Source: CAVQYV01 sp963718295 [NCBI: uncultured Methylomirabilota bacterium] (GTDB taxonomy: Bacteria > Methylomirabilota > Methylomirabilia > CAVQYV01). Taken from it: a stretch of 64,000 nucleotides of DNA. Below, piece by piece: positions 17,760 through 47,036 of the stretch. Numbering within the stretch: the first letter of the stretch is position 1; the number at the start of each line of letters is the position of its first letter. The stretch covers positions 434,001-498,000 of the forward strand of contig CAVQYV010000004.1 in the NCBI GenBank assembly GCA_963718295.1. The letters run 5' to 3'. The notes beneath the pieces are model-generated. The model searched no databases and was not told the origin of the DNA. It worked only from the letters and a program-made list of their open reading frames with translations. Both the position numbers and the translations under genes were made by a program.

Positions 17760-18704
17760 ATGGCACGACCACTGAGAATCGAATATCCAGGGGCCTTTTA
17801 CCATATCACCGCCCGGGGAAATGAGGGAAAGGAGATCTTCAAGAGCACACCGGATCGCCAGAAATTCCTTTTCTACCTTCAATCGGCCACCCAGCGCTAT
17901 CAAGCGATCATCCATGTCTATTGCCTGATGGGCAATCATTATCATCTCCTGCTGGAGACCCCCTCGGCGAATTTGTCCCAGATCCTGCAGCATATCAATG
18001 GTGCCTATACCACCTACTTCAATATCAAACGGAACCGATCGGGGCATCTGTTCCAGGGACGCTATAAGGCCATTTTGGTGGAGGCCGACGCCTATGCCAT
18101 GGAGTTATCCCGGTACATCCATCTGAATCCGGTCCGAGCGGGCCTGGTCACCCACCCCGAGCAATATCCCTGGTCCAGCTATCCCTGCTATACGGGCCAG
18201 CAGAAGAAGCCGGATTGGCTCACGGTGGAGTTCATCCTGGGCTATTTCGATAAAAAGTCCCCTTCCGCGCATCGCAGGTATCGGGAGTTCATCCAAGCCT
18301 CTGTCGACCAGCGACCTGAGAGTCCGCTCCGAAACACCGTGGCTTCCACCATCTTGGGGAACCTCGATTTCGTTCATACCATTCAGGAGAAATATCTGGC
18401 AGACCGAAAGCCGGATCGGGATCTGCCGGCCCTGGCCGAGCTGTCCAAGCCCTCCATCCCCGAAATCCTGGAATCGGTGAAAGCGGAATGGGGAGAAGAC
18501 CCTTCTATCGCCCAGAAAGTCGCCCTCTATCTCTGCCGCCAATACAGTGGAAGGACCCTCAAGGAGATTGGGAGTCACTTCGGAATCGGCGAGTCGGCGG
18601 TATCGCAGGCGAGTCGCCGATTCCAACTAGCCTTGGATCAGAACAACCAGCTCAGAGGAAAGATCCGTAGGTTCTGCCAGAGATTGAGGTTGTGCAAAGT
18701 GTAG
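17760..18704 (+). mobile_element. REP-associated tyrosine transposase (RAYT, Y1/HUH superfamily)
   Basis: A 314-residue Y1 transposase of the RAYT type. It has the N-terminal MARPLRIEYPGAFYHITARGN signature, the HUH motif HYH (His60, His62), the SGHLFQGRY segment and the catalytic Tyr119 in RYIHLNPVRAG. A C-terminal extension carries a helix-turn-helix (KEIGSHFGIGESAVSQASRR) typical of RAYTs rather than IS200. Perfect 16-bp inverted repeats lie 79 bases before the start and across the stop codon (TAG at 18702-18704). The gene looks intact. RAYTs are usually immobile single-copy genes that spread short REP sequences. Confidence 0.9.
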
Positions 18705-22269: not shown

Positions 22270-22298
22270 AGTATACTCCCAATGGGGGAAAAAGTCTA
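22270..22298 (-). promoter_or_regulatory. rnpB promoter
   Basis: Minus strand: TAGACT (22298-22293), 17-base spacer, TATACT (22275-22270), seven bases before the inferred RNA 5' end. The -35 box overlaps the glnE stop codon at 22296-22298. Confidence 0.65.
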
Positions 22299-25200
22299 AT
22301 CCCTTTGAGGTTGAGATTCTCGGGCAAAGATGATCCCAAACAGCCTCCTCACCTCGGATCGGCGGGACTCCAGCTCAAAGAGCAGGCTCTTCCCTGCCTC
22401 CCCCCCTCCTGGATCCGGATATCCGAGACGCCTGGCCAGGTTGTTGACCTTCTCCGGCGAGGAGGGCAGGGCATCGATGGCCTGATCGGATAGGATGCGC
22501 AGCCGATTCTCCACCCTCCTCATAAACAGGTAGGATTCCTTGAGGATGTCCGCCTCAGGAGGGGAGAGGAGGCCATGGGCCCTCAGTGCATCCAAGGCCT
22601 TTAGGGTATTGGGAGCTTTCAGGGCTTCCACCTGCTGTCCGTGGCGCAGCTGCAGCATCTGGACCACGAACTCGATATCGACGATTCCTCCCACCCCCAA
22701 TTTGATATCCAGGGAATTGGGATGATAGCCTCCCCTCTCATTGCCCATTCGCTGCCGCATCCGGACCATCTGCTGGATCTCCTCTGGACCCAGGGATCCT
22801 CCATACACGAATTGGCTGAGGCGATTCAAGAACTGATCGGCCAGATCCCGATCTCCCGCTACCACCCGGGCCTTGATCAGGGCCTGTCTTTCCCACAGGT
22901 CTGCCAGGGTCTGGAAGTGGTGGACGTAGGAAGCGAGGCTCTGGGCAAGCTCCCCCTTTTGTCCTCCTGGACGGAGGCGTACATCCACCCGATAGGTAGC
23001 CCCTTCTTTGGTCAGGGTGGTGAGGATCCTCAGGGTGCGGTGTGCCAGCTTGCTGTAGTATTCCCTGAGGGTGATGCCCTCCGAGGGAGGCTCCTTGCCC
23101 CTCTCAATCCCCGCGGTTTCGCCCTCTTCATCATAGACGAAGAGGATATCCAGGTCTGAGCCGAAATTAAGCCCGTAGCCACCCAATTTCCCCAGGCCGA
23201 TAATGGTGACTTGGCTTCTCCTTGTCTGGTCTCCCCCCTGGATTTGGGGAATCCCGTATTGGGCTTCCATCTCCTCCGAGGCCATTTGAAGGGCTGCACT
23301 CAGGCACAACTCGGCGACATCCGTGAGGTCATGAAGGGTCCTTTGGATATCCGCTTTTCCCAAGATCTCCCGGATGCCGATCCGTAATTCCTGGGATTTC
23401 TTGAAATGCCGGAGGGCATCGAGTTTCAGGGCGGGGGTTGAGGCATCGGAGAGAAGGGAGGAGAGATCGTTTGCTATCTCGGCCCTGGTTCTGCGGGCCT
23501 CCAACGTCTCCGGATAGAGAAATACATTCATGAGATCGGGATGCAGGATCAGGAGTTGGGCAAGGAATTCACTATGACCGAAGAGCCGGATCAGGATATT
23601 CAATAGCCCCGGGTTTTCATTCAGAAGGGAAAAGAGGGAGTCCCGGGCGCCCATGGCCCGCACGAAACGCTCGAAGCTGTTGAGGGCCATATCCGCATCG
23701 GGGGCCAGCTTCAGGGCATCGAGGAGCAAGGGCAGGAGCTTGGGAAGGTGGCGTCTCTCGGATACTGCGAATTGGGAGGCCTGGGGCCCCTCCTTCAACA
23801 TCAGCAGGTTCCGGTAGCCGCGCTCCACGTCGAGGACGCCCGCCTCTTTCAACCTTTTTCTCACGATGTTCCCCCCCTCGGGGTCCTCCAGGAGGAGGGA
23901 GAAATCGGGGGATTCTCCGGGGACGGGGACCGAGACGGCCTGATAGAAGAGGCGGTCATAGATCCATCTCACCGTCTTGGTGTGCTCACGAAGATCATGG
24001 AGGAAGTCGTCTCCCGGGGTGCTGGTGAGCTGCCGATGGTATCCCAGGCGTTTGGCAAGCTTGATGATCTCTTTCGGATTCTCCGGCAGGGTATGGGTTT
24101 TGATCTGATGCAGGAGTTGAAGTCGATGCTCCACCCGTCGCAGGAAGATGTAGGCCTTGGTCAGTTGAGAGTAATCCTCCAGGGGCAAAAAGCGCTCCTC
24201 GGCCAGGCGGTGCAGTGCCCTGAGGGTGTTGGCTTCTCGGATCCAAGGGTTTTGGCCGCCGTGCACCAGCTGGAAGGCCTGAGCGATGAATTCGATCTCC
24301 CGAATTCCTCCGGGCCCCAGTTTCACGTCCCTTTCCACCTTCGGATCCAGGGCAATGGAGAGATTGATCTTCTCTTTCATGGCTTTGATCTCGCCGATGG
24401 CCTGGTAATCCAAGTATTGACGGTAGATGAAAGGCGAAAGGGTCTGGAGGAACCTCTTCCCCAGGGCTTCATCCCCCGCCACCGGTCTGGCCTTAATGAG
24501 GGCCTGTCGTTCCCAGGTCCGACCCTGGGTCTCATAGTACAATTCGTAGGCCCGCAGAGAGAGAGCCAGATCCCCACTTCGCCCCCCGGGGCGCAGTCTC
24601 AGATCCACCCGGAAACAGTGACCTTCCTCTGACGGATCTGCTATGGCCTCGTTGATCATCTTGGCGAGGCGGGTGAAGTAGAATCGGTTATCCACCTTGA
24701 GGATCTCGGGAGAGTGCGGATGCGTTTCCCCCTCCTCCGAATAGAGGTAGATGATGTCGATGTCGGAGCTGAAGTTGAGCTCGGCGCCTCCCAATTTTCC
24801 GAGGCCCAGGGTGGCGAAGGAGGACTCACGGCTCACCGCATCAGGGTCGAGGAATCGGGGCATTCCATGTTTTCGCACCAGCTGGGCCTGACTCACTTGG
24901 AAAGCCTTCTGGAGGGTGATCTCAGCCAGGAAAGAGAGCTGCTGGGTGACATCGATCAGATCCAGATTTCCCAGGATGTCCGCTACTCCGATCCTCAGAA
25001 TCTCCCGGCGGTTGAAGAGGCGAAGTGCCCGAACCTTCTCCTGTAGGCTGGATCGGGATTCCACCTGGGCATCCAGTTCCTCCATCATCTCCTCCTTGAG
25101 CTTGGCCCTCCTCAACTGTCCAGGCTCGAGCAGCCAGTAGAGGTATTGGGGATGGCGGAGAAGGATATCGGTAAGGAATTGGCTGTGAGAGAAGATGGCA

Positions 25201-25502
25201 ATCGCCACATCCAGGACCCGGGGGGACTCCAGCAGGAACGAGTACAGGAACTTTGGGTTCAGGACCTTATCCGCATAAGCCTCGAAATTGTTGAGGGCCA
25301 TGTCCGGATCGGGGCAGTTGCCCAAAGAGGCGAGGAGGGGCGGAAGCATGGAGGATAAGAGGACGCCGCATGAGGGATCTTTGCCCAATTGGGCAAAGTT
25401 ACGCTCTGCCCGGGCGAGGTCCTCGAATCCTGCAGCCCGAAGGTCATGCTCCGGGAGAGCCGGGGGCTTGGGAGATGGAGGTGTCGAGGCTGGATCTGGC
25501 AT
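22296..25502 (-). CDS. glnE: Bifunctional glutamine synthetase adenylyltransferase / adenylyl-removing enzyme
   Basis: GlnE switches glutamine synthetase off by adenylylation and on by phosphorolytic deadenylylation, under PII control. The 1068-residue protein has the two nucleotidyltransferase domains with the GlnE signature: LGKLGGAELNFSSDIDIIYLY in the N-terminal (removal) half and LGKLGGYGLNFGSDLDILFVY in the C-terminal (transfer) half, each followed by its GlnD-like uridylyltransferase domain (for example VDLRLRPGGRSG and VDVRLRPGGQKG). It is longer than the E. coli enzyme (about 950) owing to a Pro-rich N-terminus. It has its own promoter upstream and ends at the rnpB promoter. No Shine-Dalgarno is obvious at the chosen ATG. 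Confidence 0.95.
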   Translation of the reverse strand: MPDPASTPPSPKPPALPEHDLRAAGFEDLARAERNFAQLGKDPSCGVLLSSMLPPLLASLGNCPDPDMALNNFEAYADKVLNPKFLYSFLLESPRVLDVAIAIFSHSQFLTDILLRHPQYLYWLLEPGQLRRAKLKEEMMEELDAQVESRSSLQEKVRALRLFNRREILRIGVADILGNLDLIDVTQQLSFLAEITLQKAFQVSQAQLVRKHGMPRFLDPDAVSRESSFATLGLGKLGGAELNFSSDIDIIYLYSEEGETHPHSPEILKVDNRFYFTRLAKMINEAIADPSEEGHCFRVDLRLRPGGRSGDLALSLRAYELYYETQGRTWERQALIKARPVAGDEALGKRFLQTLSPFIYRQYLDYQAIGEIKAMKEKINLSIALDPKVERDVKLGPGGIREIEFIAQAFQLVHGGQNPWIREANTLRALHRLAEERFLPLEDYSQLTKAYIFLRRVEHRLQLLHQIKTHTLPENPKEIIKLAKRLGYHRQLTSTPGDDFLHDLREHTKTVRWIYDRLFYQAVSVPVPGESPDFSLLLEDPEGGNIVRKRLKEAGVLDVERGYRNLLMLKEGPQASQFAVSERRHLPKLLPLLLDALKLAPDADMALNSFERFVRAMGARDSLFSLLNENPGLLNILIRLFGHSEFLAQLLILHPDLMNVFLYPETLEARRTRAEIANDLSSLLSDASTPALKLDALRHFKKSQELRIGIREILGKADIQRTLHDLTDVAELCLSAALQMASEEMEAQYGIPQIQGGDQTRRSQVTIIGLGKLGGYGLNFGSDLDILFVYDEEGETAGIERGKEPPSEGITLREYYSKLAHRTLRILTTLTKEGATYRVDVRLRPGGQKGELAQSLASYVHHFQTLADLWERQALIKARVVAGDRDLADQFLNRLSQFVYGGSLGPEEIQQMVRMRQRMGNERGGYHPNSLDIKLGVGGIVDIEFVVQMLQLRHGQQVEALKAPNTLKALDALRAHGLLSPPEADILKESYLFMRRVENRLRILSDQAIDALPSSPEKVNNLARRLGYPDPGGGEAGKSLLFELESRRSEVRRLFGIIFARESQPQRD

Positions 25503-25658: not shown

Positions 25659-25687
25659 AGTATACCTGAGTCTATTTCTTGTGGCAA
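25659..25687 (-). promoter_or_regulatory. glnE promoter
   Basis: Minus strand: TTGCCA (25687-25682), exactly 17 bases, TATACT (25664-25659); each hexamer matches consensus at five of six positions. The -35 lies in the last codons of the MauE/DoxX-like gene. The untranslated leader would be about 150 bases. Confidence 0.6.
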
Positions 25688-26178
25688 GCCGGGATCCGGT
25701 GACTCAGCAGGGAGTCCAGTGCGAGAAAGCCCCGGTCGAAGAGGAGGATCAGAACTCCCATGGCCAGCATGAGGAGATCGCGCAGGAGGGTACTCCAGCC
25801 CAGCTCCTCCCCAGGTCCGAAACAGCCACAGTCTATCTGTGTCCCCCGGGCAATGTTGATGGAGATGGCAATGATGAAGCTCATCAACGTGGCCGAGAGG
25901 ACCAATGAGCTGCTCCGGGTGAGAAAACCCAAAATCAGGAAGAGGCCCCCGATCATCTCCAGCCAGGGAAGGAACAGCGACCACAGATTGACCAGCAAGG
26001 GGGGAAGGATGGCATAGTTGGCCACATCCTCCGCAAGCCGGGCAGGGTAAAGGATCTTTTCCCAACTCGCCCAAACGAAGAGGGCCCCCAGGACGACCCT
26101 CAAGATCGGGGTCAGATAGGGGCTCGAAAGGAGCAAGAGGACCTTCCTGGCGAGAGAATGGGATTCCCTGGGGCCCAT
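25672..26178 (-). CDS. MauE/DoxX-family membrane protein
   Basis: A 168-residue protein with about four membrane helices (roughly 22-40, 62-84, 92-110, 130-150). It carries the family motif TQIDCGCFG with Cys117 and Cys119, which in MauE and DoxX relatives is linked to thiol-disulfide or quinone-coupled redox work. It is the last gene of a three-gene minus-strand operon, starting three bases after the rhodanese stop. Function is inferred from family and context; the redox partner is unknown. Confidence 0.75.
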   Translation of the reverse strand: MGPRESHSLARKVLLLLSSPYLTPILRVVLGALFVWASWEKILYPARLAEDVANYAILPPLLVNLWSLFLPWLEMIGGLFLILGFLTRSSSLVLSATLMSFIIAISINIARGTQIDCGCFGPGEELGWSTLLRDLLMLAMGVLILLFDRGFLALDSLLSHRIPACHKK

Positions 26179-26181
26179 ACC

Positions 26182-26676
26182 TTATTTGCCCTCCATTCGA
26201 AATCCCTTTTTTTCCCAGGCAAGGATTCCGCCCTGCAAGATCTTCACTTGCCTCCTTCCCGTCCTTTGAAGCAGATAGGCCAATTCCTTCTCCGTGGGCC
26301 GCCCCCGCCCCTCCCCATAGACAATGATCGACTTCTCCTGGGGGAGCGAAGAATAGAATAATGGATACAAGGAGGGGAAATCCTTGGGTGGGAGGTTCAG
26401 GGCCTGAGGGAGGCGGGCCTTCCTGAATTGGTTCCTGGAACGGCTATCCAGGACGATGGCCTGTCCCTCCTGGGCCCATCTTTGCGCTTGCTCGGGATCG
26501 ATCTCGGAGTAAGACGATTCGCAAAGAAAGGGCGGAATCAAGGGCAGAGGCGAGGCCCGAAGGAGATTGGACCCCAGGGCAAAAGCCAGGCTGAGAAGGG
26601 CGATGAATACGCTGCCCAGAAGAATTGCCCAGAGATCATTCTGCTGTAATCTGCGAAATAACAAGGTTCTCCTCAT
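26182..26676 (-). CDS. Membrane-anchored rhodanese-like protein lacking the catalytic Cys
   Basis: A 164-residue protein with one N-terminal membrane helix (about residues 15-38) and a single rhodanese domain: SSYSEIDPEQAQRW, IVLDSRSRNQFRKARLPQALNLP and LQGGILAWEKKGF are typical. At the active-site loop, where the family has Cys followed by a six-residue phosphate-binding loop, the sequence reads VYGEGRGRP with Gly121 in place of Cys, so sulfur transfer through a persulfide is unlikely. It overlaps the upstream zinc-ribbon gene by ATGA and is followed at three bases by the MauE/DoxX-like gene. A binding or scaffolding role is possible. Confidence 0.75.
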   Translation of the reverse strand: MRRTLLFRRLQQNDLWAILLGSVFIALLSLAFALGSNLLRASPLPLIPPFLCESSYSEIDPEQAQRWAQEGQAIVLDSRSRNQFRKARLPQALNLPPKDFPSLYPLFYSSLPQEKSIIVYGEGRGRPTEKELAYLLQRTGRRQVKILQGGILAWEKKGFRMEGK

Positions 26677-28145
26677 CGCAGGGTGCTGAGTTGAATGGCG
26701 GTGCCGAGGAAGTCCTCCTGCAGGGAATTGCCTTGCTCTCGGAAGGGGAAAAAGACCAGCTCCCCTGGAGAAAGGGAAATGTCAGCCCCTGCGACTGCCT
26801 CCACCCTTCTGGGACTTGCCTTGGGTGCGATGGAGACCAGAGTGATCTGGGCAAAGGCTGCCGCTTCCTCCCGATCCAGCACTGCGCCCGGATGAAGCGG
26901 CTCCCCGCTTGGCTCTCGTGTGTGCACTGGAGGCTGCATGCGGGTAAAGGATGTAGCGAGGCGATTGGCCACGGCCAGATCCCGAAGCTTGAAGGCGGGA
27001 ATGAAAAAGCGGAGCGGGATGTTCCGATCCGCCTCCTGGGGCAGGCGGGCCATGGGGGCAATCTGATTCAGATCATACTTGCTTCTGATTTGTCTCTCCT
27101 CAAAGAAGACTTGGCCCAAAAAGACCCAAATAGGCAGGTAATGGTCCTTCTTCTCATCCGTCTTCACAGGAGCCATCGCGACCCGATAGCGGAGATCCGC
27201 GAATTCATCCCCCTGGATGTGCCAGACCCGATGGCACGCGGGGCAGGAAAAGATGCGGTAGTCCGGCTCCACGGGAAGTCCGGAGGCGCAGTTGGGGCAG
27301 CTCAGGGGGCGGAAGCGAAGAGTCTGAGCGGAGAAATCAGCCTCCTTCCGGGGTCCCGGGAAGAAAGGCGAAGGGGTCTCCTGCAGGAGAGTGCGGCCCA
27401 CGGCATCGAAGAGAAGCGAACCAACGCGCTCATCCGGCTCCAGCTCGACCTCCCATATGGGAAAGAAGATCAGAGAGAGGGTCCTATTGATGATGCCCCT
27501 CCGGGTTACCTTATCCGGGGTGAAGTCCTTTCCAACCTTATCCCAGGCTTCCTTTGGGGCCATGGCCACCGGGATGATTCTGCCGATCCGACCGATCTCT
27601 TTGGGATCGAAGAGCCGGAGGGTCAGGACCTGGGGCCGAACACTCAGAGAGCGCAGGGTGAGGGCAGGAAGATCTGCAGCCAGAAAGCTCCGGTCGAGGT
27701 GGGAAGCAGCAAGCGAATATTCCTTCTCCTTAAGAGGTGGAAGAGGCGAAGCGTCCCAGGGGTCCAATCCCTCCGACTGGGACGGGCCGAACAGCAAAGA
27801 GGCATTGGTTTCCGGACAGCGCTCCAGCAAGGGGGAGGAGACGGTTTTCTCTCTCCAGGTCCAGCAGAAGTCCAGGCCGCTCAGCCGATAGTAAGGCACA
27901 AAGGCCATATGGATCTTCCGAATTCGATCCTTTCTGCCCCGGGAGGCGAGGAAGCGGAGGGTGGCCCCCCGTACCTCCTCCTCTTTCATGATGGGGGCAA
28001 GGAAATAGCTCAAGGTTCGCGCGTATCCGGTAACCAGCAGGGCGCTGCCGCAAAATCGGCACCGGATGGCGTTGGAGCCCTCAGCAAAATCGAGTTCTCC
28101 TCCACATTGAGGGCAGTGAGTCGATATTTTGGGGGGCTGGTACAG
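26673..28145 (-). CDS. Protein with two zinc ribbons, function unknown; probable CTG start
   Basis: I do not recognise the family. The 490-residue reading has an N-terminal zinc ribbon (Cys11, Cys14, Cys29, Cys32) and a second one in the middle (Cys283, Cys286, Cys301, Cys304), separated by a region rich in beta-strand patterns. The first ribbon is lost if only ATG/GTG/TTG starts are considered, because the first of those is TTG at 28013. Upstream of it the frame stays open to a TAG, and CTG at 28145 has AGGAGG exactly six bases before it. A promoter lies about 50 bases further up. No signal peptide or membrane segment is evident. It heads the operon with the rhodanese-like and MauE-like genes. 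Confidence 0.65.
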   Translation of the reverse strand: MYQPPKISTHCPQCGGELDFAEGSNAIRCRFCGSALLVTGYARTLSYFLAPIMKEEEVRGATLRFLASRGRKDRIRKIHMAFVPYYRLSGLDFCWTWREKTVSSPLLERCPETNASLLFGPSQSEGLDPWDASPLPPLKEKEYSLAASHLDRSFLAADLPALTLRSLSVRPQVLTLRLFDPKEIGRIGRIIPVAMAPKEAWDKVGKDFTPDKVTRRGIINRTLSLIFFPIWEVELEPDERVGSLLFDAVGRTLLQETPSPFFPGPRKEADFSAQTLRFRPLSCPNCASGLPVEPDYRIFSCPACHRVWHIQGDEFADLRYRVAMAPVKTDEKKDHYLPIWVFLGQVFFEERQIRSKYDLNQIAPMARLPQEADRNIPLRFFIPAFKLRDLAVANRLATSFTRMQPPVHTREPSGEPLHPGAVLDREEAAAFAQITLVSIAPKASPRRVEAVAGADISLSPGELVFFPFREQGNSLQEDFLGTAIQLSTLR

Positions 28146-46088: not shown

Positions 46089-47036
46089 ATGGAGGAAGTG
46101 CTCGATCTGATCATCATCGGCGGGGGTCCGGCGGGGCTGACCGCCGGCATCTATGCAGCTCGTTCCCGCCTCAATTGCCTCTTACTGGACCGCCAGGGAC
46201 CCGGGGGCCAGGTTCTCACCACCGATTGGATCGAGAACTATCCGGGGTTTCCGGAGGGGATCGGCGGCATGGAGCTGGTAGATAAGATGCTGCGACAGGC
46301 GGAGGCCTTCGACCTCAAGATCCAGATCCAGGAAGTCATAGGATTGGCTCAGGAGGCGGCATCCTGGAAGGTTGTGACCTCGGAGGGAGACCTTCGCTGT
46401 CTTTCGGTCATCGTGGCCCCCGGGGCCGACTACGCCCGACTGGGCGTGCCCGGGGAAGACCGTCTACGGGGCAAGGGGGTATCTTACTGTGCCACCTGCG
46501 ACGGGGCCTTTTTCAAAGATCTGCCAGTGGCGGTCGTGGGGGGAGGGGATACGGCGTTGCAGGAGGCCCTGTTTCTTACCCGATTTGCCTCCGCCGTAAC
46601 TCTGATTCATCGCCGGGATCGGCTGCGGGGGGCGAAGATCTTGCAGGAACGGATCCAGGAGGATGCCAAGATCCAAATCCTATGGAATAGCCAGGTGACC
46701 GAGATCCTGGGAGGTGAGGAGGTACGGGAGATCCGGGTGATCGATCGGATCAGCGGCGAGTCGAGGGAAACTGCGGTGAAGGGCATCTTCATCTTCGTGG
46801 GCAGCCAACCCAATACGGCCTTCCTCAAGGATATCCTCCCCCTGGACGATCAGGGTTTCATCATCACCGATGAGGAACTTTGCACCTCGGCCTCCGGGGT
46901 ATTTGCAGCCGGGGATTGTCGGAAGAAGTCCTTCCGCCAGATCGCGACTGCGGTGGGAGAAGGGGCGTTGGCGGCGCATTCCGCCATCCATTATCTGGAA
47001 GAACTGGTCTCCTCCTCCCGGGGAAAAACCCCTTGA
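46089..47036 (+). CDS. trxB: Thioredoxin reductase
   Basis: TrxB transfers electrons from NADPH via FAD to thioredoxin. The 315-residue protein shows the FAD motif IIGGGPAGLTAGIYAARS, GGQVLTTDWIENYPGFP, the redox pair CATC (Cys134, Cys137), the NADPH motif VVGGGDTALQEALFL and the C-terminal FAAGDCR. The ATG at 46089 lies five bases after the porin terminator's T-run, so it has no room for a normal leader or promoter. A GTG at 46098 is an alternative with GGAGGAA directly in front. Leaderless translation or read-through would be needed for the ATG. Confidence 0.93.
   Translation: MEEVLDLIIIGGGPAGLTAGIYAARSRLNCLLLDRQGPGGQVLTTDWIENYPGFPEGIGGMELVDKMLRQAEAFDLKIQIQEVIGLAQEAASWKVVTSEGDLRCLSVIVAPGADYARLGVPGEDRLRGKGVSYCATCDGAFFKDLPVAVVGGGDTALQEALFLTRFASAVTLIHRRDRLRGAKILQERIQEDAKIQILWNSQVTEILGGEEVREIRVIDRISGESRETAVKGIFIFVGSQPNTAFLKDILPLDDQGFIITDEELCTSASGVFAAGDCRKKSFRQIATAVGEGALAAHSAIHYLEELVSSSRGKTP

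What the first reader, a model, noticed from the sequence alone, without database searches (positions are those of the whole stretch)
25672..28145. Operon of a double zinc-ribbon protein, a Cys-less membrane rhodanese and a MauE/DoxX-like protein
The three genes overlap or touch (ATGA, 3 bases) and have one promoter. None has a clear partner in the window. A rhodanese domain with Gly in place of Cys, tethered to the membrane next to a CxC MauE-type protein and a double zinc ribbon, suggests an undescribed redox or metal-related membrane system. This is the best candidate here for something new.
Basis: partly seen in the sequence, partly recalled or inferred. Interest (0 to 1): 0.65.

Follow-up and report, generated by a model that had tools for sequence, protein, structure and literature searches.

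The report
Membrane rhodanese paired with MauE protein
Two of the three neighbouring genes, a membrane-tethered rhodanese and a MauE/DoxX-type membrane protein, form a widely kept pair that probably moves electrons between protein thiols outside the inner membrane, while the zinc-ribbon gene beside them belongs elsewhere; the pair seems little described but resembles known thiol-redox complexes.

Summary
The three minus-strand genes are real, at the stated coordinates. The trio is not a conserved system: no rhodanese or MauE stood at 31 distinct zinc-ribbon places, and no zinc-ribbon gene at 90 MauE places. The zinc-ribbon family neighbours an SPFH/Band-7 protein in 16 of 20 wide stretches. 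The rhodanese-MauE pair is conserved: a rhodanese domain lies upstream of MauE on the same strand in 78 of 90 places, within 400 bp in 75, fused in 11, never downstream or opposite. All 91 MauE proteins, window included, keep CGC. Of the 78 rhodaneses, 46 carry the catalytic-position Cys and 32 do not; 28 of the 32 form one clade with long N-terminal extensions, 20 of them with cNMP-binding domains. The window's Gly121 form is a rarer, short, unplaced variant. Best reading: an extracytoplasmic thiol-redox module with a tethered rhodanese, catalytic in some lineages and a non-catalytic subunit in others. Nearest precedent: the mycobacterial DoxX-SseA-SodA complex. New variant of a known kind; interest 0.45.

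The parts
26673..28145 (-). Zinc-ribbon protein, 490 aa, CTG start behind AGGAGG; an internal duplication, each half a C4 zinc ribbon plus a beta-rich domain; relatives neighbour SPFH/Band-7 proteins
   Evidence: 8 Cys invariant in 31 rows; N half vs C half, hhalign probability 99.1, E 1.7e-17; SPFH neighbour in 16 of 20 wide loci; AlphaFold2 mean pLDDT 87.5
26182..26676 (-). Membrane-tethered rhodanese, 164 aa, predicted N-in with one TM (about 15-36) and a periplasmic rhodanese domain; Gly121 in place of the catalytic Cys, Arg88 in place of a nearly invariant His
   Evidence: PF00581 E 9.7e-13; more K/R before the TM than after it in 63 of 78 rhodaneses, equal in 11, fewer in 4
25672..26178 (-). 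MauE/DoxX-type four-helix membrane protein, 168 aa, CGC motif (C117, C119) in the predicted periplasmic loop between TM3 and TM4
   Evidence: PF07291 E 9.7e-28; CGC in 91 of 91; helices 22-43, 60-83, 87-111, 128-147; mean pLDDT 88.6
22296..25502 (-). glnE-type gene (glutamine synthetase adenylyltransferase; name recalled from the sequence, no family search run), the next gene downstream; not part of the pair
   Evidence: no rhodanese, MauE or zinc-ribbon gene in the stretches held at 6 glnE relatives, and no glnE match at 90 MauE places

Best explanation
Rhodanese and MauE form one membrane module facing the periplasm; the zinc-ribbon gene is a local addition. MauE is a four-helix DoxX-type membrane protein whose CGC pair cycles between dithiol and disulfide and exchanges electrons with the membrane (probably quinone) on one side and with a thioredoxin-fold carrier or the rhodanese on the other. 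The rhodanese is held beside MauE by one membrane helix. In the Cys form, whose loop has a second Cys, it is itself the thiol or sulfane-sulfur carrier. In Cys-less forms it cannot carry sulfur at that place and acts as a ligand-binding, docking or control subunit; in the large Cys-less clade a cytosolic cNMP-binding or other N-terminal domain could signal through the helix. The window has the short Cys-less form, so there it is most likely a non-catalytic subunit of MauE. Shown by computation: pairing, order, fusion, CGC conservation, the loop classes. Inferred: topology (charge rule), redox direction, quinone, control.
For: 78 of 90 MauE places have a rhodanese domain upstream on the same strand, 0 downstream, 0 opposite, 75 within 400 bp, 11 fused; two of the 12 places without one hold under 250 bp of upstream DNA. 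In the reverse sample, 28 of 30 rhodanese places hold MauE in the stretch fetched, up to about 3.5 kb. Control: no rhodanese or MauE hit at 37 distinct zinc-ribbon and glnE places. CGC in 91 of 91 MauE. A TM before the rhodanese in 78 of 79 (the 79th is cut short), with more K/R before it in 63, equal in 11, fewer in 4. 45 of 46 Cys-type loops have a second Cys; 28 of 32 Cys-less ones share YGxxxS[RKS], so that class is under constraint. Thioredoxin-fold genes lie on the same strand near 22 of 90 places, with CxxC in 10 of the 11 that accompany the large Cys-less clade. AhpC/TSA was the commonest neighbour family, 6 of 42 neighbours scanned (the 42 were chosen from 70 listed). Single neighbours include VKOR-family (2) and DsbD-like (1) proteins. 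Precedent: DoxX with the sulfurtransferase SseA and SodA in mycobacteria (passages of PMC7907618, and PMC10943396).
Against: No activity, partner or redox direction was tested. Only 11 of the 28 in the large Cys-less clade have a thioredoxin-fold gene in the stretch held, and none of my thioredoxin-fold or cNMP profiles matched anywhere in the 64 kb window. At least 10 of 90 MauE places with over 1.4 kb of upstream DNA have no rhodanese. CDF-MauE fusions in 6 of 90 and ACR3 neighbours point instead to metal or metalloid handling. The MauE sample was drawn by similarity to the window's protein and from one phylum.
Confidence: 0.45

Rival explanations
1. The pair is a metal(loid) module: the CGC of MauE and the Cys of the rhodanese bind or reduce thiophilic metals or arsenic species in the periplasm next to an exporter.
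For: MauE in one frame with a cation diffusion facilitator in 6 of 90 places, and a separate CDF gene in one more (L146) (curated models run on L149 and L152 only). In L146, L152 and L162 the rhodanese lies 1.1-1.3 kb before MauE; in L152 and L162 the CDF part of the fusion fills that gap. ACR3 arsenite exporter directly upstream of the rhodanese in two places (L152, L160; TIGR00832 above cut-off).
Against: Metal genes were not seen at most of the neighbours scanned (2 of 42 SBF/ACR3), and none is next to the window's pair. Cys-less rhodaneses could not bind such metals through that loop.
Confidence: 0.2
2. The pair is a sulfane-sulfur oxidising complex, like thiosulfate:quinone oxidoreductase (DoxDA): the rhodanese binds thiosulfate or persulfide and MauE passes the electrons to quinone.
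For: Rhodanese domain plus DoxX-type family match (PF07681 39 bits, cut-off 23.6); near-cut-off DoxD match of the window protein (PF04173, 22.3 bits, cut-off 22.7).
Against: Cannot work this way in the 32 of 78 Cys-less pairs, nor in the window. The DoxD match is just below cut-off.
Confidence: 0.12
3. The three genes act together: the zinc-ribbon protein and the pair make one envelope-stress or metal system in this lineage.
For: ATGA overlap and a 3-base gap in the window. Relatives of the zinc-ribbon protein neighbour SPFH proteins, and in Bacillus an SPFH protein with a zinc-ribbon membrane partner works in PspA membrane stress (passages of PMC8581546; PMC9239133).
Against: The trio was found nowhere else: 0 of 31 distinct zinc-ribbon places, 0 of 90 MauE places.
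Confidence: 0.1
4. The window's rhodanese is a decaying gene that lost its Cys by drift.
For: It has also lost a nearly invariant His (Arg88), its loop fits neither large class, and it sits on a long branch.
Against: Intact frame overlapping its upstream neighbour, other conserved residues kept (Asn37, Asp77, Arg79, Tyr120, Gly140, Gly150, Trp154), and Cys-less forms are common and constrained elsewhere.
Confidence: 0.13

Closest known systems
DoxX-SseA-SodA membrane oxidoreductase complex of mycobacteria (passages seen in PMC7907618 and PMC10943396; original paper not read)
   Same: A DoxX-type membrane protein working with a sulfurtransferase (SseA; rhodanese family recalled) in thiol homeostasis
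   Different: That SseA is untethered is recalled. Here the rhodanese has its own membrane helix, is often Cys-less and can be fused to MauE; no SodA was looked for.
MauE with the thioredoxin-like MauD of methylamine utilisation (roles recalled; Pfam MauE matched)
   Same: Same MauE family; thioredoxin-fold genes occur near 22 of 90 places
   Different: No methylamine dehydrogenase family appeared in the part of the neighbour list shown (first 25 of 38 families); a rhodanese is the constant neighbour
TsoB, rhodanese/DsbD fusion-like selenoprotein (NCBIfam NF045694; listed in PMC13188914, passages)
   Same: A rhodanese joined to a membrane thiol-electron carrier
   Different: DsbD-type carrier and selenocysteines, not MauE and not Cys-less
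YdjG/YdjI of the Bacillus pspA operon (passages of PMC8581546, PMC9239133)
   Same: Zinc-ribbon protein encoded beside an SPFH/Band-7 protein, as for relatives of the window's first gene
   Different: YdjG is a membrane protein; sequence relationship of the two zinc-ribbon proteins was not tested
NACHO/TMEM35A (PDB 9h9e_B)
   Same: Best structural match of the MauE model: Z 14.2, rmsd 2.9 over 119 residues
   Different: Animal receptor assembly factor; a shared fold shows no shared function, and mostly helical models had a typical best Z of 14 without a clear relative (note)

Membership tests
Pfam MauE (PF07291) | Score above the gathering cut-off | tested here: met
   97.5 bits against 27, residues 21-146
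Pfam Rhodanese (PF00581) | Score above the gathering cut-off | tested here: met
   48.9 bits against 22.2
Catalytic rhodanese (sulfurtransferase) | Cys at the head of the active-site loop | tested here: not met
   Gly121 in the window; Cys in 46 of 78 relatives
Methylamine utilisation system (mau) | MauE encoded with methylamine dehydrogenase genes | tested here: inconclusive
   The genes next to the window's pair are a zinc-ribbon gene and a glnE-type gene; the rest of the genome is not held
DoxX-SseA-SodA complex | DoxX-type protein and rhodanese in one physical complex | not testable with these tools
   Only gene pairing and fusion were shown
DoxX-SseA-SodA complex | Superoxide dismutase partner | not tested
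   No search for SodA was made
DoxDA thiosulfate:quinone oxidoreductase | DoxD family score above cut-off | tested here: not met
   PF04173 22.3 bits, cut-off 22.7
YdjGHI/PspA-type membrane stress module (zinc-ribbon gene) | SPFH/Band-7 gene beside the zinc-ribbon gene | tested here: not met
   No SPFH match in the 64 kb window with four queries (best E 0.067, to zinc ribbons only), though 16 of 20 wide relatives have one

The most novel reading that the evidence does not exclude
A large class of these modules is a one-component signalling or gating device: a cytosolic cyclic-nucleotide (or other) sensor acts through a single membrane helix on an extracytoplasmic pseudo-rhodanese that controls the thiol chemistry of MauE; the window carries a stripped form without sensor and without Cys.
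Probability: 0.22. Interest if true: 0.7.

Novelty: new variant of a known kind. Interest (0 to 1): 0.45.

Why it matters
Here rhodanese domains without the catalytic Cys are a stable class tied, gene to gene and by fusion, to a membrane thiol protein, with sensor domains probably on the other side of the membrane. That gives a clear, testable case of a pseudo-enzyme subunit in an envelope redox system, and a lead to the role of a widespread MauE group, including forms fused to metal exporters.

Tried and rejected
Trio as a conserved unit: rejected. Zinc-ribbon gene as a metallochaperone of the pair: no support; only weak ribbon matches below cut-offs. A first scan of genome contigs with the zinc-ribbon protein found no relative, because single-protein scans reach close relatives only; whole-genome searches then found many. 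Fold of the zinc-ribbon protein: no Foldseek match in PDB at E 1e-3 or better. The second look gave Z about 7 to copper amine oxidase N-domains and to YpeB/YpmB, in the range that may mean only a common arrangement. MauE model: no Foldseek match at E 1e-3 or better; VKOR-like 6wvi ranked second there with E 0.97, not taken as evidence. PDB sequence searches: nothing convincing for MauE, small zinc ribbons for the first protein, many ordinary rhodaneses for the second.

Origin of the Cys-less form: not settled. The quick tree needs two changes, but one origin is not rejected (p-AU 0.235), and the window row is a long branch without a supported place.

Organism: not identified. No genome is held for the window; best identity of a Pnp-type protein (name by eye) to 395 genomes of one phylum was 59%. 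The glnE relatives found were five Deltaproteobacteria MAGs and one MAG titled only 'bacterium', 36-38% identical; one of those six genomes has a zinc-ribbon relative. Whether the Gly codon is a sequencing error could not be tested.

Plasmid searches gave nothing useful: no zinc-ribbon relative, one distant MauE, and ordinary CDF hits.

Literature: rhodanese + MauE gave 1 paper, rhodanese + DoxX 2 papers, listings only, none about the pair by title and abstract start; most subscription journals are missing from the library. Also searched. Passages only were read of PMC8581546, PMC9239133, PMC10943396, PMC13188914 and PMC7907618.

Samples and drops: 90 MauE places (30 given, 60 fetched) from the longer, capped list, taken from the top by similarity, so biased to the window's kind and to one phylum. 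The 30 hold about 1.5 kb and the 60 about 3 kb on each side, less at contig ends. The tree used 79 of 91 rows (those with both domains), loop columns left out. The 51 zinc-ribbon records are 31 distinct places, because 20 were fetched again with wider flanks; the other 11 hold about 1.5 kb a side. Family scans of neighbours covered selected proteins: 10, 42 of 70, 8, 6. Neighbour frames came from a greedy longest-frame script and can be wrong in GC-rich stretches.

Full report
What is there. Three minus-strand genes run 28145-25672: a 490 aa zinc-ribbon protein (CTG start behind AGGAGG), a 164 aa rhodanese and a 168 aa MauE/DoxX protein. The first two overlap by ATGA and the next gap is 3 bases. 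A glnE-type gene follows on the same strand after about 170 bp.

The zinc-ribbon protein is a separate story. Its two C4 ribbons are invariant in 31 rows, and its two halves are copies of one another (hhalign probability 99.1, E 1.7e-17 over 198 columns). In the phylum sampled, 90 of 297 genomes have a match at E 0.001 or better. Of 20 wide stretches, 16 hold an SPFH/Band-7 protein (family confirmed on one example), and 9 hold a third, uncharacterised gene. None of 31 distinct places holds a rhodanese or MauE of this kind, and none of 90 MauE places holds the zinc-ribbon gene. In Bacillus an SPFH protein (YdjI) and a zinc-ribbon membrane protein (YdjG) act with PspA at the membrane (passages), a loose parallel. 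No SPFH gene was found in the window.

The rhodanese and MauE belong together. In 90 MauE places a rhodanese domain lies upstream on the same strand in 78, within 400 bp in 75, in one protein in 11, and never downstream or on the other strand. The three more distant ones (L146, L152, L162) all have a CDF exporter in the stretch. Of the 12 places without a rhodanese, two hold under 250 bp of upstream DNA; the other ten hold at least 1.4 kb. In the reverse sample, 28 of 30 rhodanese places hold MauE. The zinc-ribbon and glnE places, most of them from the same phylum sample, serve as a control: 0 of 37. Every MauE keeps CGC (91 of 91).

Two kinds of rhodanese. 46 of 78 have Cys at the head of the loop; 45 of these have a second Cys with three to five residues between, and 45 have a short N-terminus. 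32 of 78 have none: 28 share YGxxxS[RKS], form one clade (SH-aLRT 100, quick tree) and all carry long N-terminal extensions, 20 with a cNMP-binding domain in the same frame (curated family confirmed on two examples). The other 4, like the window, are short. Both kinds occur in the same genome at least three times (G372: L105 and L167; G396: L130 and L139; G086: L142 and L175), so one does not simply replace the other. The window's loop, YGEGRGRP, fits neither large class; its place in the tree is unsupported.

Topology and neighbours. A membrane helix precedes the rhodanese in 78 of 79, with more K/R on its N side in 63, equal in 11, fewer in 4, so the rhodanese is most likely periplasmic. The MauE loop between helices 2 and 3 is richer in K/R than the other two in 42 of 53, tied in 3, poorer in 8, which puts CGC on the same side. 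Thioredoxin-fold genes lie near 22 of 90 places: 11 of the 28 in the large Cys-less clade and 9 of the 46 of Cys type, with CxxC in 10 of the 11. None of these profiles matched in the window. Other neighbours seen once or twice: VKOR-family, a DsbD-like protein, ACR3. In 6 of 90 places MauE is in one frame with a cation diffusion facilitator (curated models on two of six).

How it probably works. MauE is the thiol-redox core, the rhodanese its tethered partner: catalytic where Cys is present, a binding or control subunit where it is not. Pairing, order, fusion and motif conservation are shown; topology is a charge-rule inference; redox direction, quinone and control by cNMP are inference. The mycobacterial complex of DoxX with the sulfurtransferase SseA (passages) is the nearest tested precedent.

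Verdict. New variant of a known kind; interest 0.45.

Noticed in passing
L135, L149, L152, L156, L162, L176; separate gene in L146: MauE fused to the C-terminus of a CDF (zinc-transporter-like) cation exporter; a rhodanese lies upstream of the fusion in L152 and L162.
   Followed up: partly
L152:5043-6338 and L160:3883-5085: ACR3 arsenite exporter genes directly upstream of the rhodanese.
   Followed up: partly
L109, L125, L130, L131, L133, L141, L142, L148, L150, L157, L158: Single proteins made of a cNMP-binding domain, a membrane helix, a Cys-less rhodanese and MauE; Pfam checked on L109.
   Followed up: partly
L094, L095, L101, L105, L109, L112, L118 and others, gene after MauE: A small (about 110-125 aa) protein with a lipoprotein-like start (by eye) follows many Cys-less pairs; no family found for two examples.
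   Followed up: partly
L111:833-1144: A TusA-like gene (motif recalled, not searched) lies before a MauE that has no rhodanese.
   Followed up: no
One search match list: Several rhodanese matches have one in-frame TGA; selenocysteine rhodaneses are known (PMC13188914, passages), not tested here.
   Followed up: no
window 46089-47036 (+): Looks like a thioredoxin reductase gene (by eye, no family search), about 20 kb from the pair.
   Followed up: no
window 17760-18704 (+): Looks like a REP-type (RAYT) transposase gene (by eye, no family search).
   Followed up: no
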